The notes beneath the pieces were generated by a model. The model had not been told where the DNA came from and made no database searches. It saw nothing but the letters and a program-made list of their open reading frames with translations. A stretch of DNA of 64,000 nt from Flavobacterium sp. N2038. GTDB taxonomy: Bacteria > Bacteroidota > Bacteroidia > Flavobacteriales > Flavobacteriaceae. The DNA lies in assembly GCF_025947185.1 (NCBI RefSeq), contig NZ_CP110001.1:1488001-1552000 (forward strand). Direction: 5' to 3'. The position numbers and the translations under genes are program-made. Below, one piece after another: positions 31,006-64,000 of the stretch. Position 1 is the stretch's first letter; the number at the start of each line of letters is the position of its first letter.

Positions 31006-31584
31006 ATGAAAAAAATTATTTTATCTGCCATTGCTATTATGGCTTTTGCATTCTCAAATGCTCAGGAAACAAGATTCGGTATTAAAGGAGGTTTAAATAT
31101 TACAACTTTTGCAGGTGGGAATTATTGGGATGCTAACTCTTTAGTTGGCTTTCAAGTTGGTGGTTTTGCTGAAATTAAAGTTATCGAAAGATTATCTATA
31201 CAGCCAGAGCTGTTATTTTCTACTCAAGGAGCCAGAATTGAGTTAGCTGGAAACAATGATTTTGATACAAAACTAAATTATATTAACGTTCCTGTTTTAG
31301 CAAAGTTTTATATTACAAAGCAATTTACTGCTGAAGCTGGACCACAATTAGGATTTTTAGTTTCTGCTAAAAGTGATGGAGAAGATGTTAAAGATGGTTT
31401 CAAATCAGTTGATACAGGATTTAATTTAGGACTTGGATACAACTTTACGGATAATTTCTCAGTTGGAGCTCGTTATACTATAGGTTTGTCAAATATCGCA
31501 GATAATGATGCAGATACTTGGGATGAATATTATGATAGCCCAAAAAACAGTGTTTTTGCTATAACTGCAGCATATAAATTCTAA
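31006..31584 (+). CDS. Small outer-membrane beta-barrel, copy 2
   Basis: 192 residues, ATG start. Signal peptide MKKIILSAIAIMAFAFSNAQ followed by the barrel strands FGIKGGLNITTF, FQVGGFAEIKVIERLSIQPE, LNYINVPVLAKFYITKQFTA and EAGPQLGFLVSAKSDGEDVKD, NLGLGYNFTDNFSVGARYTI, AAYKF. It is a close paralogue of the next gene (both have SAK.. GEDV and YNFT(D/E)N(F/I)SVGARYTIGL), so a tandem duplication is likely. It has its own -7 element and terminator. Confidence 0.9.
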   Translation: MKKIILSAIAIMAFAFSNAQETRFGIKGGLNITTFAGGNYWDANSLVGFQVGGFAEIKVIERLSIQPELLFSTQGARIELAGNNDFDTKLNYINVPVLAKFYITKQFTAEAGPQLGFLVSAKSDGEDVKDGFKSVDTGFNLGLGYNFTDNFSVGARYTIGLSNIADNDADTWDEYYDSPKNSVFAITAAYKF

Positions 31585-31607
31585 TCTGAATTTTAAAATA
31601 TTTCTTG

Positions 31608-31636
31608 AACCTTCCTGATTCAGGAAGGTTTTTTTT
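31608..31636 (+). terminator. Terminator of barrel copy 2
   Basis: aaccttcctg, loop att, caggaaggtt and eight T. Almost identical to the one at 32350-32377. Confidence 0.92.
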
Positions 31637-31710
31637 ATGCTAGTTCTTACTTGCTTAGCGCTTTACAAAACTTTAATCTATTAATAATGTAATCGTTATA
31701 GGTTAATTCT

Positions 31711-31718
31711 TATATTTG
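31711..31718 (+). promoter_or_regulatory. -7 element of the beta-barrel gene at 31742
   Basis: TATATTTG, ending 23 bp before the start codon. Confidence 0.55.
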
Positions 31719-31741
31719 ATACTTAACTTTAATTTAAAGAA

Positions 31742-32326
31742 ATGAAAAGAATTATTTTAGTAACAATCGTACTTATGGCATTTGGATTTACAAACGCACA
31801 ATCGACCAGATATGGTGTGAAAGGAGGCTTGAATGTTTCTGGTATAACAGGTTATGCTGAAGACACAAAAACTTTAATAGGTTTTCATGTTGGAGGTTTT
31901 GCAGAAATAAAAGTTATTGAAAAATTAGCTATTCAGCCTGAATTTTTGTTTTCTACACAAGGAACAGTAATTGAGGGCTTCAACGGAGATTCTAATACTA
32001 CTGTAAAAGTGAATTATTTAAATATTCCGGTTTTAGCTAAATATTCTATTTCAAATGCTTTTACTGTTGAAGCGGGACCACAAATTGGGTTTTTATTATC
32101 TGCTAAAACCAGAGGTGAGGATGTTAGTGATCTTTATAAATCAACAGATTTTGGTTTCAATTTAGGATGTGGATATAATTTTACGGAAAATATTTCTGTA
32201 GGTGCTCGTTACACAATTGGTCTAACAGATGTTAATGATGCTTCTGATGAATCTCTATATCCGGATTTGTATAATGCAAGTTTTAAAAATAGCAATTTTG
32301 CATTGTCATTGGCATATAAATTTTAA
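31742..32326 (+). CDS. Small outer-membrane beta-barrel, copy 3
   Basis: 194 residues, ATG start. Signal peptide MKRIILVTIVLMAFGFTNAQ. Strands YGVKGGLNVSGI, FHVGGFAEIKVIEKLAIQPE, VNYLNIPVLAKYSISNAFTV, EAGPQIGFLLSAKTRGEDVS, NLGCGYNFTENISVGARYTI, SLAYKF. The nearest relative is the gene 158 bp upstream, including its terminator sequence, so the two arose by duplication. One Cys (NLGCGY) is unlike its sister. Function unknown. Confidence 0.9.
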   Translation: MKRIILVTIVLMAFGFTNAQSTRYGVKGGLNVSGITGYAEDTKTLIGFHVGGFAEIKVIEKLAIQPEFLFSTQGTVIEGFNGDSNTTVKVNYLNIPVLAKYSISNAFTVEAGPQIGFLLSAKTRGEDVSDLYKSTDFGFNLGCGYNFTENISVGARYTIGLTDVNDASDESLYPDLYNASFKNSNFALSLAYKF

Positions 32327-32349
32327 TATTTAATTCAGCATATTTTTAA

Positions 32350-32377
32350 AACCTTCCTAATTCAGGAAGGTTTTTTT
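32350..32377 (+). terminator. Terminator of barrel copy 3
   Basis: aaccttcct, 5-nt loop, aggaaggtt then a T run; a sequence twin of the terminator at 31608-31636. Confidence 0.92.
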
Positions 32378-59714: not shown

Positions 59715-62570
59715 ATGCCTAAAGACACATCAATAAAATCCGTTTTAATAATAGGTTCAGGACCTATTGTTATTGGTCAAGCTTGCGAATTCGATTATGC
59801 GGGATCTCAATCTGCACGTTCGATTCGTGAAGAAGGAATTGAAGTTATTTTGATTAACTCGAACCCAGCAACTATTATGACCGACCCTTCTATGGCGGAT
59901 CATATTTATTTGAAACCATTAACTACAAAATCGATTATTGAAATTCTGAAGGAACATCCGCAAATTGACGCTGTTTTGCCAACTATGGGAGGACAAACAG
60001 CTCTGAACTTGTGTCTGGAAGCAGATGAAAAAGGAATTTGGCAGGATTTCGGAGTAAAATTAATTGGAGTTGATGTAAATGCCATTAATATTACAGAAGA
60101 CAGAGAGCAGTTTAAACAGCTTTTAGAAAAAATTAATGTACCAACTGCACCTGCAAAAACAGCTACTTCCTATTTAGAAGGTAAAGAAATTGCTCAGGAA
60201 TTTGGTTTCCCACTTGTAATTCGTCCTTCATTTACACTTGGTGGAACAGGAGCAGCAGTGGTTTACAAAAAAGAAGATTTTGATGAGCTTTTAACCAGAG
60301 GTCTTGAAGCATCACCAATTCACGAAGTTTTAATTGATAAAGCTTTGATGGGATGGAAAGAATACGAATTGGAACTTTTAAGAGATAAAAATGACAATGT
60401 TGTAATTATCTGTTCGATCGAAAATATGGATCCAATGGGAATTCATACCGGAGATTCGATCACAGTTGCACCAGCGATGACATTATCTGATACAACTTTC
60501 CAAAAATTACGTGACTACGCCATCTTAATGATGAGAAGTATTGGAAATTTTGCCGGAGGATGTAACGTACAATTCGCAGTTTCACCAGACGAAAAAGAAG
60601 ATATCGTAGCAATCGAGATTAACCCTCGTGTATCTCGTTCTTCTGCATTAGCATCTAAAGCGACAGGATATCCAATCGCTAAAATTGCTTCTAAACTGGC
60701 TTTAGGATATAACTTAGATGAATTACAAAATCAAATTACAAAATCTACTTCGGCTCTTTTTGAACCAACTTTAGATTATGTAATCGTAAAAATCCCACGT
60801 TGGAACTTTGATAAATTTGAAGGTGCTGACAGAACTCTTGGACTTCAGATGAAATCTGTTGGTGAGGTTATGGGGATCGGACGTTCTTTTCAGGAAGCTT
60901 TACACAAAGCGACTCAATCTTTGGAAATTAAGAGAAATGGAATAGGAGCGGACGGAAAAGGATATAAAAATTATGAACAAATTATCGAGAAACTAACTTT
61001 TGCAAGTTGGGATCGTGTTTTTGTAATTTATGATGCGATTGCAATGGGAATTCCGTTGAGCCGTATTCATGAAATCACAAAAATTGATATGTGGTTCTTA
61101 AAACAATACGAAGAGCTATATACTTTAGAAAAAGAAATTTCTAATTATAAAGTTTCAAATTTACCAAAAGAGTTATTGCTTGAAGCGAAACAAAAAGGTT
61201 TTGCCGACAGACAAATCGCTCATATGATGAACTGTCTGGAAAGTGAAGTACATACTTTGCGTATGGATATGAACATCAATCGTGTGTTTAAACTGGTAGA
61301 TACATGTGCGGCTGAGTTTAAAGCAAAAACACCTTATTACTATTCTACTTTTGAGGCTGAAATCGAAAAAGCAAATGGAGAGCGTTATGTAGATAACGAA
61401 AGTATTGTAACTGAGAAAAAGAAAATCATTGTTTTAGGTTCCGGACCAAACAGAATCGGACAAGGTATCGAGTTTGATTACTCTTGTGTTCACGGAGTTT
61501 TGGCTGCAAAAGAATGTGGTTATGAAACAATCATGATTAACTGTAATCCTGAAACAGTTTCAACAGATTTTGATACGGCTGATAAATTGTACTTCGAACC
61601 AGTTTTCTGGGAGCATATTTATGACATCATTCAGCATGAGAAACCAGAAGGTGTAATTGTACAGCTTGGTGGTCAGACTGCTTTGAAATTGGCTGAAAAA
61701 TTATCTAAATACGGCGTAAAAATAATCGGAACTAGTTTTGATGCGCTTGATTTAGCCGAAGACAGAGGTCGTTTCTCAGATTTATTGACAGAATTGCATA
61801 TTCCTTTCCCTAAATTCGGAATTGCTGAAACGGCAGACGAAGCTTCTGCTCTTGCAGATTCATTAGACTTCCCATTGTTAATTCGTCCTTCATATGTATT
61901 AGGAGGTCAGGGAATGAAAATTGTAATCAACAAAAAAGAATTAGAGGAGCACGTAATCAATTTATTGAAAACAATTCCTGGAAATAAATTACTTCTGGAT
62001 CATTATTTAGCCGGAGCAATTGAAGCTGAAGCTGATGCAATCTGTGATGCTGATGGAAATGTGTACATCATAGGAATTATGGAGCATATCGAACCTTGCG
62101 GAGTTCACTCTGGAGATAGTAATGCAACATTGCCTCCTTTTAACTTAGGAGAATTCGTGATGCAACAAATAAAAGACCATACTCATAAAATTGCAAGAGC
62201 ACTTAAAACAGTTGGTTTAATCAACATTCAATTTGCAATAAAAGATGATACAGTTTATATTATCGAAGCAAACCCAAGAGCTTCAAGAACGGTTCCGTTT
62301 ATTGCAAAAGCTTATGGAGAACCTTATGTAAACTATGCAACAAAAGTAATGTTAGGGCACAGTAAAGTAACAGACTTTGATTTTAATCCGCAATTAAAAG
62401 GATATGCGATCAAACAACCGGTTTTCTCTTTCAGTAAATTCCATAATGTAAACAAAGCGTTAGGACCAGAAATGAAATCAACAGGAGAAAGTATCTTGTT
62501 TATTGATGACCTAAAAGATGATCAATTCTACGAATTGTACTCTAGAAGAAAAATGTATTTGAGTAAATAA
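59715..62570 (+). CDS. carB: Carbamoyl-phosphate synthase large subunit, short form
   Basis: 951 residues, ATG start. It makes carbamoyl phosphate from glutamine-derived ammonia, bicarbonate and two ATP, for pyrimidine and arginine synthesis. First ATP-grasp half about 1-400 (KSVLIIGSGPIVIGQACEFD, LVIRPSFTLGGTGAAVVYKK, AIEINPRVSRSSALASKATG), oligomerisation part about 400-545, second ATP-grasp half about 550-935 (IIVLGSGPNRIGQGIEFDYS, LIRPSYVLGGQGMKI, IEANPRASRTVPFIAKA). The C-terminal MGS-like allosteric domain of about 130 residues found in E. coli CarB is absent; the protein ends at YSRRKMYLSK. The last 24 codons and the terminator are repeated at 63388-63525. Confidence 0.96.
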   Translation: MPKDTSIKSVLIIGSGPIVIGQACEFDYAGSQSARSIREEGIEVILINSNPATIMTDPSMADHIYLKPLTTKSIIEILKEHPQIDAVLPTMGGQTALNLCLEADEKGIWQDFGVKLIGVDVNAINITEDREQFKQLLEKINVPTAPAKTATSYLEGKEIAQEFGFPLVIRPSFTLGGTGAAVVYKKEDFDELLTRGLEASPIHEVLIDKALMGWKEYELELLRDKNDNVVIICSIENMDPMGIHTGDSITVAPAMTLSDTTFQKLRDYAILMMRSIGNFAGGCNVQFAVSPDEKEDIVAIEINPRVSRSSALASKATGYPIAKIASKLALGYNLDELQNQITKSTSALFEPTLDYVIVKIPRWNFDKFEGADRTLGLQMKSVGEVMGIGRSFQEALHKATQSLEIKRNGIGADGKGYKNYEQIIEKLTFASWDRVFVIYDAIAMGIPLSRIHEITKIDMWFLKQYEELYTLEKEISNYKVSNLPKELLLEAKQKGFADRQIAHMMNCLESEVHTLRMDMNINRVFKLVDTCAAEFKAKTPYYYSTFEAEIEKANGERYVDNESIVTEKKKIIVLGSGPNRIGQGIEFDYSCVHGVLAAKECGYETIMINCNPETVSTDFDTADKLYFEPVFWEHIYDIIQHEKPEGVIVQLGGQTALKLAEKLSKYGVKIIGTSFDALDLAEDRGRFSDLLTELHIPFPKFGIAETADEASALADSLDFPLLIRPSYVLGGQGMKIVINKKELEEHVINLLKTIPGNKLLLDHYLAGAIEAEADAICDADGNVYIIGIMEHIEPCGVHSGDSNATLPPFNLGEFVMQQIKDHTHKIARALKTVGLINIQFAIKDDTVYIIEANPRASRTVPFIAKAYGEPYVNYATKVMLGHSKVTDFDFNPQLKGYAIKQPVFSFSKFHNVNKALGPEMKSTGESILFIDDLKDDQFYELYSRRKMYLSK

Positions 62571-62631
62571 TCTCAGATTCTATTATAAAAGAAAAGCTCC
62601 AATGTAAATTGGAGCTTTTTTTATTAGGGTT
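62497..62631. repeat. Direct repeat copy 1 (end of carB plus terminator)
   Basis: About 135 bp, nearly identical to 63389-63525. It spans the last 24 codons of carB, the stop, the hairpin and a few bases after. Differences I see are two single-base changes and small changes in the T tract. Confidence 0.92.
62592..62619. terminator. Terminator of carB (copy 1 of a duplicated hairpin)
   Basis: Arms aaaagctccaat / attggagctttt with a 4-nt loop. It serves carB and, from the other side, the small ORF at 62624. Confidence 0.92.
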
Positions 62632-62770
62632 TGATCCTGACTATTTTGTTATCTTTAAGTATAACTAGTTCACTGTTTGATTTCTTTTTAAATTCAATTA
62701 ATTTTTCATAAACTTTACCCATCCCGTCAACAATTTTTTGTTGATTTAAGGATCTTTTATATTCTTTCAT
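62624..62770 (-). CDS. Small protein overlapping the zeta-like gene (candidate antitoxin)
   Basis: 48 residues, ATG start at 62770 inside the end of the zeta-like gene (14-bp overlap, different frame). It begins MKEYKRSLNQQKIVDGM, mostly helical and basic (VYEKLIEFKKKSNSELVIL). The stop codon lies in the T tract of the carB terminator. Antitoxin function is inferred only from the overlap with a toxin-like gene; classical zeta antitoxins (epsilon) lie upstream and are longer. Confidence 0.6.
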   Translation of the reverse strand: MKEYKRSLNQQKIVDGMGKVYEKLIEFKKKSNSELVILKDNKIVRIKP

Positions 62771-63341
62771 TCCAATATCTTTTTAAATTATAGAATTTAA
62801 TTTCACTTAAAATTTTGATTTCAGTTTCAAAAGATTTTTCAGCTATTAATTCGGGTATTCCGAATGAATTGTCAAAAATAAGCACTTCATCTACAATTTC
62901 AAGATAAATTTCGAAAAGGTTTTTAATTCCGTTTAGGTATCTGCGCTTTATAGTTTCTGTTTCGATGTTGTGACCTCCCTCTTTTACTCTCGTTTTAACT
63001 CTTTCAATTGCTAAATCAACCGTTTCAAGCCAAAAAAATAAAAGAGTGACGTTGTATTTTTCTTTTTTTGCCTGAATAATTTTTGATTTGTAACTTTTAG
63101 TTGCCAATGTAGTTTCAAAAGCAAAGGTCCGATTTCCATCTAAAAGTTCATGGATTCGATTTAGCATTATTCTTCCAGCTTCAAAAGATACTTTTTCAGG
63201 TTGAAAAGGAGATAGTCCTTTTGCAATTTCATCAGCATTTACAAACTCTTTACAATTTAAAATTTCTGGTAAAATAGTAAAGGAAGCAGTTGTTTTTCCT
63301 GCTCCATTACAACCTGAAATAATATAAAGATTTTTACTCAT
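62757..63341 (-). CDS. Zeta-toxin-like P-loop kinase
   Basis: 194 residues, ATG start. Walker A GCNGAGKTT (about 10-18), then FVNADEIAKGLSPFQPEKVS and EAGRIML (zeta-family substrate strand with the Asp), TFAFETTLATKSY (FETT motif), RVKTRVKEGGHNI (Arg-rich sensor) and a final VLIFDNSFGIPELI. Zeta toxins phosphorylate UDP-sugars and block cell-wall synthesis; this size is at the short end. No classical epsilon antitoxin is adjacent; a 48-codon gene overlaps its 3' end. The gene lies between two copies of the carB tail. Confidence 0.88.
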   Translation of the reverse strand: MSKNLYIISGCNGAGKTTASFTILPEILNCKEFVNADEIAKGLSPFQPEKVSFEAGRIMLNRIHELLDGNRTFAFETTLATKSYKSKIIQAKKEKYNVTLLFFWLETVDLAIERVKTRVKEGGHNIETETIKRRYLNGIKNLFEIYLEIVDEVLIFDNSFGIPELIAEKSFETEIKILSEIKFYNLKRYWNERI

Positions 63342-63387
63342 TCTTACAAAGGTAAAAAATAGCGGTCATAATTATTGTTTTTTTAGT

Positions 63388-63462
63388 ATGTTTATTGATG
63401 ACCTAAAAGACGATCAATTCTACGAATTGTACTCTAGAAGAAAAATGTATTTGAGTAAATAA
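63388..63462 (+). pseudogene. Fossil 3' end of carB
   Basis: The last 24 codons of carB (FIDDLKDDQFYELYSRRKMY then LSK and stop) are repeated here without the rest of the gene. Two changes are visible against the intact copy, one of them silent in the GAC/GAT codon. Confidence 0.9.
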
Positions 63463-63525
63463 TCTCAGATTCTATTCTAAAAGAAAAGCTCCAATGTAAA
63501 TTGGAGCTTTTCTTTATTTAGGGTT
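63389..63525. repeat. Direct repeat copy 2 (carB tail fossil plus terminator)
   Basis: Counterpart of 62497-62631. The two copies bracket the zeta-like/small-ORF cassette (about 760 bp). Confidence 0.92.
63484..63511. terminator. Copy 2 of the carB terminator hairpin
   Basis: The same aaaagctccaat / attggagctttt stem as at 62592-62619. It now lies 23 bp past the stop of the minus-strand gene at 63534 and terminates it. Confidence 0.88.
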
Positions 63526-63533
63526 ATAATTTT

Positions 63534-64000
63534 TTAGTTTGAAACATCATATCTATAACTGAAAGTACCATCAGTTACTTTTGTTGTAATAGGGTTTGAT
63601 GTGCTAACAGGTTTTGAATAATCTTCAACACAATTAAACGAGAATGTTCCTTTTACAGTTTTAGCATTTGTGTCAACTGCTGTTATTATCACATTACCTT
63701 CAACCGGATATTGAATATTGGTTCCTTTGCTGTTGTATGATATTTCTACCTGAGTTTTAGAAGCATCAAAAGAAGCTACTGTAATTGGGTATGTACCAAC
63801 TTTAAGATCACTTCTTTTAATTAAAATTCTAATTTCATCGATTAAAGTTTTTCTTCCCTGTAATTGGATATATTCTTTTTGTGGATAATAATCAAATAGG
63901 GGTTTAGTTGTGTAATCTGAAGCAAATGGATTATTCATTTCCCAAAGAGTTCCGTCAATTTTAGCAGTCATGGCAAATTTTGATGTAGAATCGGGTTTCT
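63534..64000 (-). CDS. DUF6252-like secreted protein (5' end outside the window)
   Basis: At least 155 codons are visible. The frame continues past the Met at 63971 through KPDSTSKFA to the right edge, so the start and probable lipoprotein signal lie beyond. MTAKIDGTLWEMNNPFASDY and the strands RILIKRSDLKVGTYPITVAS, GNVIITAVDTNAKTVKGTFS, VTDGTFSYRYDVSN fit DUF6252, a beta-sandwich family of Bacteroidota lipoproteins of unknown role. Assignment is by pattern and moderately sure. Confidence 0.7.
   Translation of the reverse strand, partial: KPDSTSKFAMTAKIDGTLWEMNNPFASDYTTKPLFDYYPQKEYIQLQGRKTLIDEIRILIKRSDLKVGTYPITVASFDASKTQVEISYNSKGTNIQYPVEGNVIITAVDTNAKTVKGTFSFNCVEDYSKPVSTSNPITTKVTDGTFSYRYDVSN

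What the first reader, a model, noticed from the sequence alone, without database searches (positions are those of the whole stretch)
62497..63525. Zeta-toxin-like cassette between two copies of the carB 3' end
About 135 bp covering the last codons of carB, its stop and its terminator occur twice in the same orientation (62497-62631 and 63389-63525). Between them lies a complete minus-strand unit: a zeta-toxin-like kinase overlapped by a 48-codon gene. The first copy is joined in frame to intact carB; the second is a fossil tail with two base changes. So the toxin unit either arrived with a replacement carB tail (as elements integrating at gene ends do) or was captured in a duplication. The repeat also gives each end its own terminator, so the cassette is insulated from carB. 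I know no described element with this structure.
Basis: partly seen in the sequence, partly recalled or inferred. Interest (0 to 1): 0.75.

Follow-up and report, generated by a model that had tools for sequence, protein, structure and literature searches.

The report
carB-tail landing site for toxin cassette
In a Flavobacterium genome, a predicted toxin-antitoxin gene pair lies between two copies of the last codons and terminator of the gene carB; related species carry the same duplicated carB end with this pair or with unrelated genes between the copies, so the end of carB likely acts as a repeated landing site for incoming DNA.

Summary
A carB tail of about 130 bp (62497-62631) recurs at 63389-63525 at 97-98% identity, with a zeta-like kinase gene and a conserved 48-codon gene between the copies. 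It is not an assembly error: five other species carry intact carB-zeta units, four with a flanking tail copy and one with a stub. Close relatives G049 and G006 have one tail, no cassette and the right-hand neighbours seen in G000 and G063. The five carB-site zetas compared form one clade, but their hosts are scattered on the carB tree. The wider finding: 20 of 388 Flavobacterium genomes have a detached carB tail, several behind unrelated genes (metalloprotease, dehydrogenase, SIR2, permease), up to three tails in a row; a murA control gave 0 of 192. In 19 of 22 aligned copies the tail ends at the terminator; its start varies. Some cargo genes are carB neighbours in other species. Best reading: recombination anchored in the conserved carB end adds a new end plus cargo and leaves the old tail behind. 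The gene pair also sits at other gene ends with duplicated tails. Closest known: insertion with long target duplication (restriction-modification genes, Helicobacter) and stacked immunity arrays (Vibrio). Toxicity, antitoxin function and recombination route are untested.

The parts
59715..62570 (+). carB, intact, 951 aa; host gene whose 3' end is duplicated
62497..62631 (+). tail copy T1: last 24 codons of carB, stop, terminator; runs into the stop codon of the 48-aa gene
62589..62622 (.). hairpin 1, predicted shared terminator of the converging carB and cassette genes
62624..62770 (-). 48-aa antitoxin-like gene; no Pfam, NCBIfam or PADLOC match; conserved after zeta in 79 of 80 named loci
62757..63341 (-). 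zeta-toxin-like P-loop kinase, 194 aa
63342..63388 (-). leader of the cassette (one promoter-like match 63349-63321, no more than chance allows) up to the junction with tail copy 2
63389..63525 (+). tail copy T2, fossil: about 24 carB codons, stop, terminator
63480..63515 (.). hairpin 2, lies between the cassette and the right-hand neighbour gene
63534..64000 (-). right neighbour (DUF6252 lipoprotein-like), cut by the window; its relatives are the first gene after a single carB tail in G049, G030, G101 and G120

Best explanation
The 3' end of carB is likely a landing site for foreign genes in Flavobacterium, and this zeta-like two-gene unit likely entered by recombination anchored in the conserved carB end, bringing its own last codons and terminator and leaving the old carB tail behind it as the second copy. 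Shown: the duplicated tail, relatives with one tail and no cassette, the same cassette at carB in several scattered species, and carB tails behind other cargos, sometimes three in a row. Inferred: one end of incoming DNA pairs with carB, the other end joins inside the resident carB tail without homology (homology-facilitated illegitimate recombination), so carB stays whole, the cargo lies behind the new end, and the old tail is pushed outward. Once flanked by two carB tails the unit has homology arms on both sides: it could enter any carB by homologous exchange and be lost cleanly by recombination between its tails, which would also keep the two tails of one genome alike. The two genes would act as a kinase toxin and its small inhibitor, which would favour keeping the unit. 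Toxicity and inhibition are untested.
For: Carriers at carB: intact in G000, G063, G116, G199 and G256 and in Flavobacterium sp. HJJ with only a tail-2 stub; remnants in G042 with two tails and in G089, 13 residues of the small gene; G368 has a remnant about 3 kb downstream. Empty sites: 28 of 30 carB loci with 1.5 kb downstream show no zeta hit, G089 with its stub among them; G049 and G006 have the right-hand neighbours of G000 and G063 directly after one tail. The five intact zetas compared form one clade (SH-aLRT 99*), yet the carB tree needs 7 changes of state for 8 carriers, 6 forced by starred branches, no more clustered than shuffled labels. Other cargo: 20 of 388 genomes with a carB match (six of these matches weak) have a detached carB tail, 18 on the same contig. 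Of 22 copies aligned at E under 1e-20 in 17 genomes, 19 end at +44 to +70 from the stop, while starts range from -60 to -574. By eye the terminator stems of T1 and an older copy differ in G105, G219, G270, G271 and G291. Cargo as carB neighbour elsewhere: a YiaA-family gene follows a single tail in 13 genomes, in nine of them as the first gene, and follows T2 in G256; a dehydrogenase is first in G112 and G141 and lies between tails in G219. G116 against G256: third-position differences 0.23-0.48 in nine upstream genes, 0.26 in carB, 0.067 in zeta, 0.04-0.18 in the next seven genes, then 0.44-0.48 in three: a shared block that starts at the carB end. Controls: detached murA tails 0 of 192 against carB 6 of 190 in the same draw; the tail of a LysE-family gene is duplicated in 1 of 142 genomes, the one with a cassette. 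No recombinase family in the 10 cargo proteins scanned (one search lists 24 from ten genomes).
Against: For the window's own cassette a donor origin of T1 cannot be shown: T1 and T2 share their terminator stem, and T2 is equally near G000's T1 and G049's tail. In 12 of the 17 genomes with aligned copies the terminator stems look alike, which also fits plain target duplication. T2 is nearest its own genome's T1 in G063, G199 and G256, tied in G000, not in G116 or G042. The coding part of most copies is too conserved to tell donor from recipient. G219, G112 and G141 lie in one supported carB clade, so the dehydrogenase may be native there and tail 2 the trace of an older event. [quoted passage not shown] Zeta and carB divergence agree for G000-G063 (0.35 and 0.33), so vertical descent with clean loss explains that clade without transfer. 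The shared G116/G256 block runs well past T2, so it does not show that the two tails alone served as arms. Three of 56 control genes also have flanking repeats.
Confidence: 0.57

Rival explanations
1. Insertion with long target duplication: the two-gene unit itself inserts between staggered breaks or by template switching and duplicates 40-250 bp of target, without donor carB DNA.
For: The unit has two-copy flanking repeats at other sites as well. Of 41 repeat-flanked cassettes, 28 remain after dropping 13 whose repeat occurs three or more times in the locus (L120 is kept, its third copy being a third carB tail); 19 of the 28 hold the 3' end of an intact neighbouring ORF, 0 of 28 a 5' end. Many repeats lie within about 20 bp of the small gene's end. 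The carB tails of one genome often resemble each other.
Against: Does not explain why carB carries many other cargos, why copies end at the terminator in 19 of 22 cases, or why the stems of T1 and an older copy differ in five genomes.
Confidence: 0.25
2. One old insertion at carB, inherited vertically and lost cleanly many times by recombination between the two tails; gene conversion keeps the tails alike.
For: One zeta clade; tail-2 junction about 100 bp before the stop in G199, G116 and G256 and a similar stub in sp. HJJ; zeta and carB divergence equal for G000-G063.
Against: Needs very many losses across the genus; zeta of G116 and G256 is far closer than the upstream genes; says nothing about the other cargos.
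Confidence: 0.1
3. Integrase-driven island: a tyrosine recombinase, now lost or acting in trans, uses the carB 3' end as attachment site.
For: Gene 3' ends are classical attachment sites (recalled general knowledge); the duplicated end restores the gene.
Against: No recombinase in the window cassette or in the 10 cargo proteins scanned; tail copies start at variable positions from -60 to -574, unlike a fixed core site; no carB tail at the far end of the G116/G256 block.
Confidence: 0.05
4. Assembly or duplication artefact.
For: A direct repeat near the window end could in principle be a misassembly.
Against: Single-contig genome, 99.59% complete; the same layout in other genomes with different right flanks.
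Confidence: 0.01

Closest known systems
Insertion with long target duplication of restriction-modification genes, Helicobacter pylori (Nobusato 2000; not read itself, seen through passages of PMC1643837 and PMC3031569)
   Same: A gene unit lies between long direct repeats of host DNA that a related genome holds once.
   Different: Here the unit is a zeta-like kinase pair; the repeat is mainly a gene 3' end; one host gene (carB) collects several cargos and stacks of tails.
Stacked orphan immunity-gene arrays behind type VI effector genes, Vibrio cholerae (PMC5361080, passages read)
   Same: One-sided homology at a conserved gene is proposed to add new cargo in front and push older remnants outward, giving an ordered array.
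   Different: Here the conserved anchor is a housekeeping biosynthesis gene that stays whole, the remnants are its own tails, and the cargo is unrelated from layer to layer.
Homology-facilitated illegitimate recombination (de Vries and Wackernagel 2002, not read; named in passages of PMC2884548 and in the abstract start of PMC3240628)
   Same: Homology at one end of the incoming DNA, illegitimate joining at the other.
   Different: Known from laboratory transformation and conjugation; here only the genomic footprint is seen.
Epsilon-zeta / PezAT toxin-antitoxin modules (PDB 1gvn, 2p5t)
   Same: Kinase of the zeta fold with a small partner gene next to it.
   Different: Here the kinase gene comes first (the usual antitoxin-first order is recalled); the partner is 48 aa with no recognised family, predicted as one helix plus a beta hairpin.

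Membership tests
Zeta_toxin (PF06414) | profile match over the curated cut-off | tested here: met
   33.4 bits against 22.3, residues 3-158
Zeta_toxin (PF06414) | P-loop kinase fold like PezT/zeta | tested here: met
   AlphaFold2 pLDDT 88.5; best PDB match PezT 2p5t E 7e-8, zeta 1gvn E 8e-7, AvrRxo1 structures and other kinases also match; no PDB sequence match up to E 1
Zeta_toxin (PF06414) | kinase activity that poisons the cell | not testable with these tools
   needs expression and assay
Type II toxin-antitoxin module | conserved small partner gene next to the toxin gene | tested here: met
   partner after zeta in 79 of 80 named loci, overlapping or abutting ORFs
Type II toxin-antitoxin module | partner neutralises the toxin | not testable with these tools
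   needs a co-expression rescue assay
Insertion with long target duplication | long direct repeats flanking the unit, no transposase in the unit | tested here: met
Insertion with long target duplication | empty site with one copy in a relative | tested here: met
   G049 and G006 at carB; G034 at the LysE-family gene
Insertion with long target duplication | both copies are the recipient's own sequence | tested here: inconclusive
   tails of one genome alike in several cases; stems of T1 and an older copy differ in five other genomes
Homology-facilitated illegitimate recombination | one homologous and one illegitimate joint | tested here: inconclusive
   fixed right edge and variable left edge fit; donor origin of T1 not proven
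Integrase-dependent genomic island | recombinase gene and fixed core site | tested here: not met
   none in the window cassette or in the 10 cargo proteins scanned; variable edges
Integron gene cassette | attC-type repeat shared by many cassettes | tested here: not met
   the window repeat is a carB tail in two copies; attC-like multi-copy repeats flank the pair in some other loci only
Minimal mobile element (Neisseria type; definition recalled, papers only listed) | same conserved genes on both flanks | tested here: not met
   right flanks differ among carB-zeta carriers

The most novel reading that the evidence does not exclude
Flavobacterium uses the end of a housekeeping gene as a homology-based attachment site: each cargo plus carB tail is a portable module that enters carB in other species by ordinary recombination, stacks in order of arrival, and leaves without a scar, an array system with no integrase.
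Probability: 0.3. Interest if true: 0.8.

Novelty: new variant of a known kind. Interest (0 to 1): 0.57.

Why it matters
If right, one conserved gene end gathers defence-type and other accessory genes without any mobile-element enzyme, and the fossil tails record the order of arrivals, so gene acquisition in a genus can be read layer by layer. It would extend insertion with long target duplication from restriction-modification genes to a toxin-antitoxin-like pair, and explain how tiny units spread among species and vanish without a scar.

Tried and rejected
Assembly error: rejected, because other genomes show the same layout. Transposon or IS: no transposase ORF in the unit; no obvious terminal inverted repeats, judged by eye only. 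Integron cassette at carB: rejected; L012, L127, L128, L134, L206, L230 and L006 carry repeats of three or more copies, in part attC-like, and were set aside. The integron-integrase profile gave no hit over its cut-off in 6 genomes, while all 14 control genomes also rang, so it was uninformative. Window repeat 31521/32263: tandem paralogous genes, not a cassette. T1 against T2 ancestry by nearest neighbour: too conserved to decide. G116-G256 as proof that the two tails served as arms: dropped, because the shared block runs on through a DISARM-like cluster. Phages: 4 records with distant hits; plasmids: 583 records, 582 under 60% identity, so no near carrier there. Rows left out of counts: tail hits with E above 1e-20 (G054, G113, G120, G030 and a second one in G368). 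Literature: in the listings seen (one search showed 20 of 7,681 papers) I saw no report of carB as such a site; the library is partial.
Full report
Observation. The direct repeat is present as described: 126 bp at 98% without gaps (62497-62622 and 63389-63514), 97.1% over 137 columns with two 1-base gaps. Copy 1 closes an intact 951-codon carB; copy 2 keeps about 24 carB codons, the stop and the hairpin terminator. Between them lie a 194-aa zeta-like gene and a 48-aa gene on the minus strand. Pfam gives Zeta_toxin over its cut-off; the small gene has no family.

The gene pair. In an alignment of 22 kinases the P-loop residues GCNGAGKT and many others are invariant. AlphaFold2 gives a confident kinase fold (pLDDT 88.5) whose best PDB matches are PezT, AvrRxo1 structures and zeta. 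The small gene follows the kinase in 79 of 80 named loci, nearly all Bacteroidota by title, overlapping or abutting it in most, and is predicted as one helix plus a hairpin. That is what a toxin with a downstream antitoxin would look like; activity is untested.

Distribution. Matches to the kinase occur in 121 of 398 Flavobacterium genomes; some are broken and the tally includes distant members of the family. At carB the unit is intact in G000 (the window's genome), G063, G116, G199 and G256, and in Flavobacterium sp. HJJ, where tail 2 is only a stub. Remnants lie at carB in G042 and G089. Of 30 carB loci with 1.5 kb downstream, 28 have no zeta hit, the stub-bearing G089 among them. G049 shows one tail followed by a relative of the window's right-hand neighbour gene, and G006 one tail followed by the genes of G063's right flank. 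The carB tree (48 genomes, last 160 bp left out) needs 7 changes of state for 8 carriers, 6 forced, and 165 of 500 shuffles are as low, whereas the five intact carB-site kinases compared are one clade. The tail-2 junction lies about 100 bp before the carB stop in G199, G116 and G256, with a similar stub in sp. HJJ. One founding association, then spread or loss, fits best.

carB as a general landing site. Tail searches found detached carB ends in 20 of 388 genomes that have a carB match (six of the 388 matches are weak): G000, G029, G042, G063, G105, G116, G199, G219, G223, G226, G256, G270, G271, G272, G291, G293, G317, G367, G368 and G370; in G226 and G317 the copy is on another contig. This is a lower bound: only genomes with a second hit were re-examined, and G028, G046, G159, G164, G168 and G250 were not counted, because their extra hits were whole or split ends on separate contigs. 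DNA alignment at E under 1e-20 gave 22 copies in 17 genomes; 19 end between +44 and +70 from the stop, the exceptions being G105 (+9), G219 (+20) and G271 (-1), while starts range from -60 to -574. G199, G256, G272, G223 and G370 have three tails counting carB's own. Cargo between tails includes a metalloprotease-like 811-aa protein, a dehydrogenase, a SIR2-like protein, a Schlafen-like protein, a PIN protein and a permease-like protein. A YiaA-family gene follows a single tail in 13 genomes, in nine as the first gene, and the second tail in G256; the dehydrogenase is the first carB neighbour in G112 and G141, which share a carB clade with G219. By eye the terminator stem of the newest tail differs from that of an older one in five genomes, and is alike in the other 12. 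A murA-tail control gave 0 detached tails in 192 genomes, its three extra hits lying in open frames of 422-448 codons, against 6 of 190 for carB in the same draw.

Evidence of exchange. Between F. weaverense and F. flabelliforme nine genes upstream of carB differ at 23-48% of third positions and carB at 26%, but zeta at 6.7% (13 of 195) and the next seven genes, among them DrmA, DrmB and a methyltransferase of a DISARM-like cluster, at 4-18%; the three genes beyond differ at 44-48%. The closely shared block begins at the carB end; it does not stop at tail 2.

The same pair elsewhere. Among 104 cassettes with enough flank, 30 have direct repeats (E under 1e-9) within 600 bp on both sides, against 3 of 56 control genes, one of which is a pair of paralogues. 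Adding named loci and removing two double entries leaves 41 repeat-flanked cassettes among at most 166. Thirteen have repeats present three or more times in the locus, some attC-like, and were dropped. Of the other 28, 19 repeats hold the 3' end of an intact neighbouring ORF and none a 5' end; the 19 include six carB and three hflX sites, and one ORF (L152, 83 aa) is doubtful. For the LysE-family site of G142 the end is duplicated in 1 of 142 genomes; G034 has the end and the flank 22 bp apart without a cassette, while G035 and G043 have other DNA there.

Mechanism. A conserved gene end as anchor, with an illegitimate joint inside the resident tail, explains the fixed right edge (the terminator, where likeness downstream of carB ends), the variable left edge, the unlike terminators and the foreign neighbours. 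It is the geometry proposed for Vibrio immunity arrays (PMC5361080, passages read). Tails of one genome are often each other's nearest match, which later exchange between the two copies would produce. For the window itself this last step is inference, since its two tails are too alike to assign to donor and recipient.

Verdict. A real and recurrent arrangement; a new variant of insertion with long target duplication. The toxin-antitoxin reading is likely from anatomy but untested.

Noticed in passing
L012, L127, L128, L134, L206, L230, L006: The kinase pair lies between 125-230 bp repeats present in three or more copies per locus, in L012 and L127 with TAAC...GTT-like ends; some of these look like chromosomal integron arrays.
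   Followed up: partly
L271 / L272 (G116, G256): A DISARM-like cluster (DrmB, DrmA, methyltransferase) lies a few kb downstream of carB and is shared at low divergence by two otherwise diverged species.
   Followed up: partly
L137 (G199): carB - zeta unit - tail - about 2.9 kb of other genes - zeta 5' fragment (39 codons) - third tail: apparently a second event joined inside an earlier zeta copy.
   Followed up: partly
window 59715-62570: CarB matches the large-subunit profiles only to about position 920 of 1052-1058, so the C-terminal part of the profile is missing; frames of similar length occur in the other genomes.
   Followed up: no
window 31521-32377: Tandem paralogous genes of 192 and 194 codons with 70% similar 115-bp ends.
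   Followed up: yes
L279, L280 (G035, G043): At the LysE-family gene end other DNA of about 0.7-1 kb sits where G142 has the cassette.
   Followed up: no
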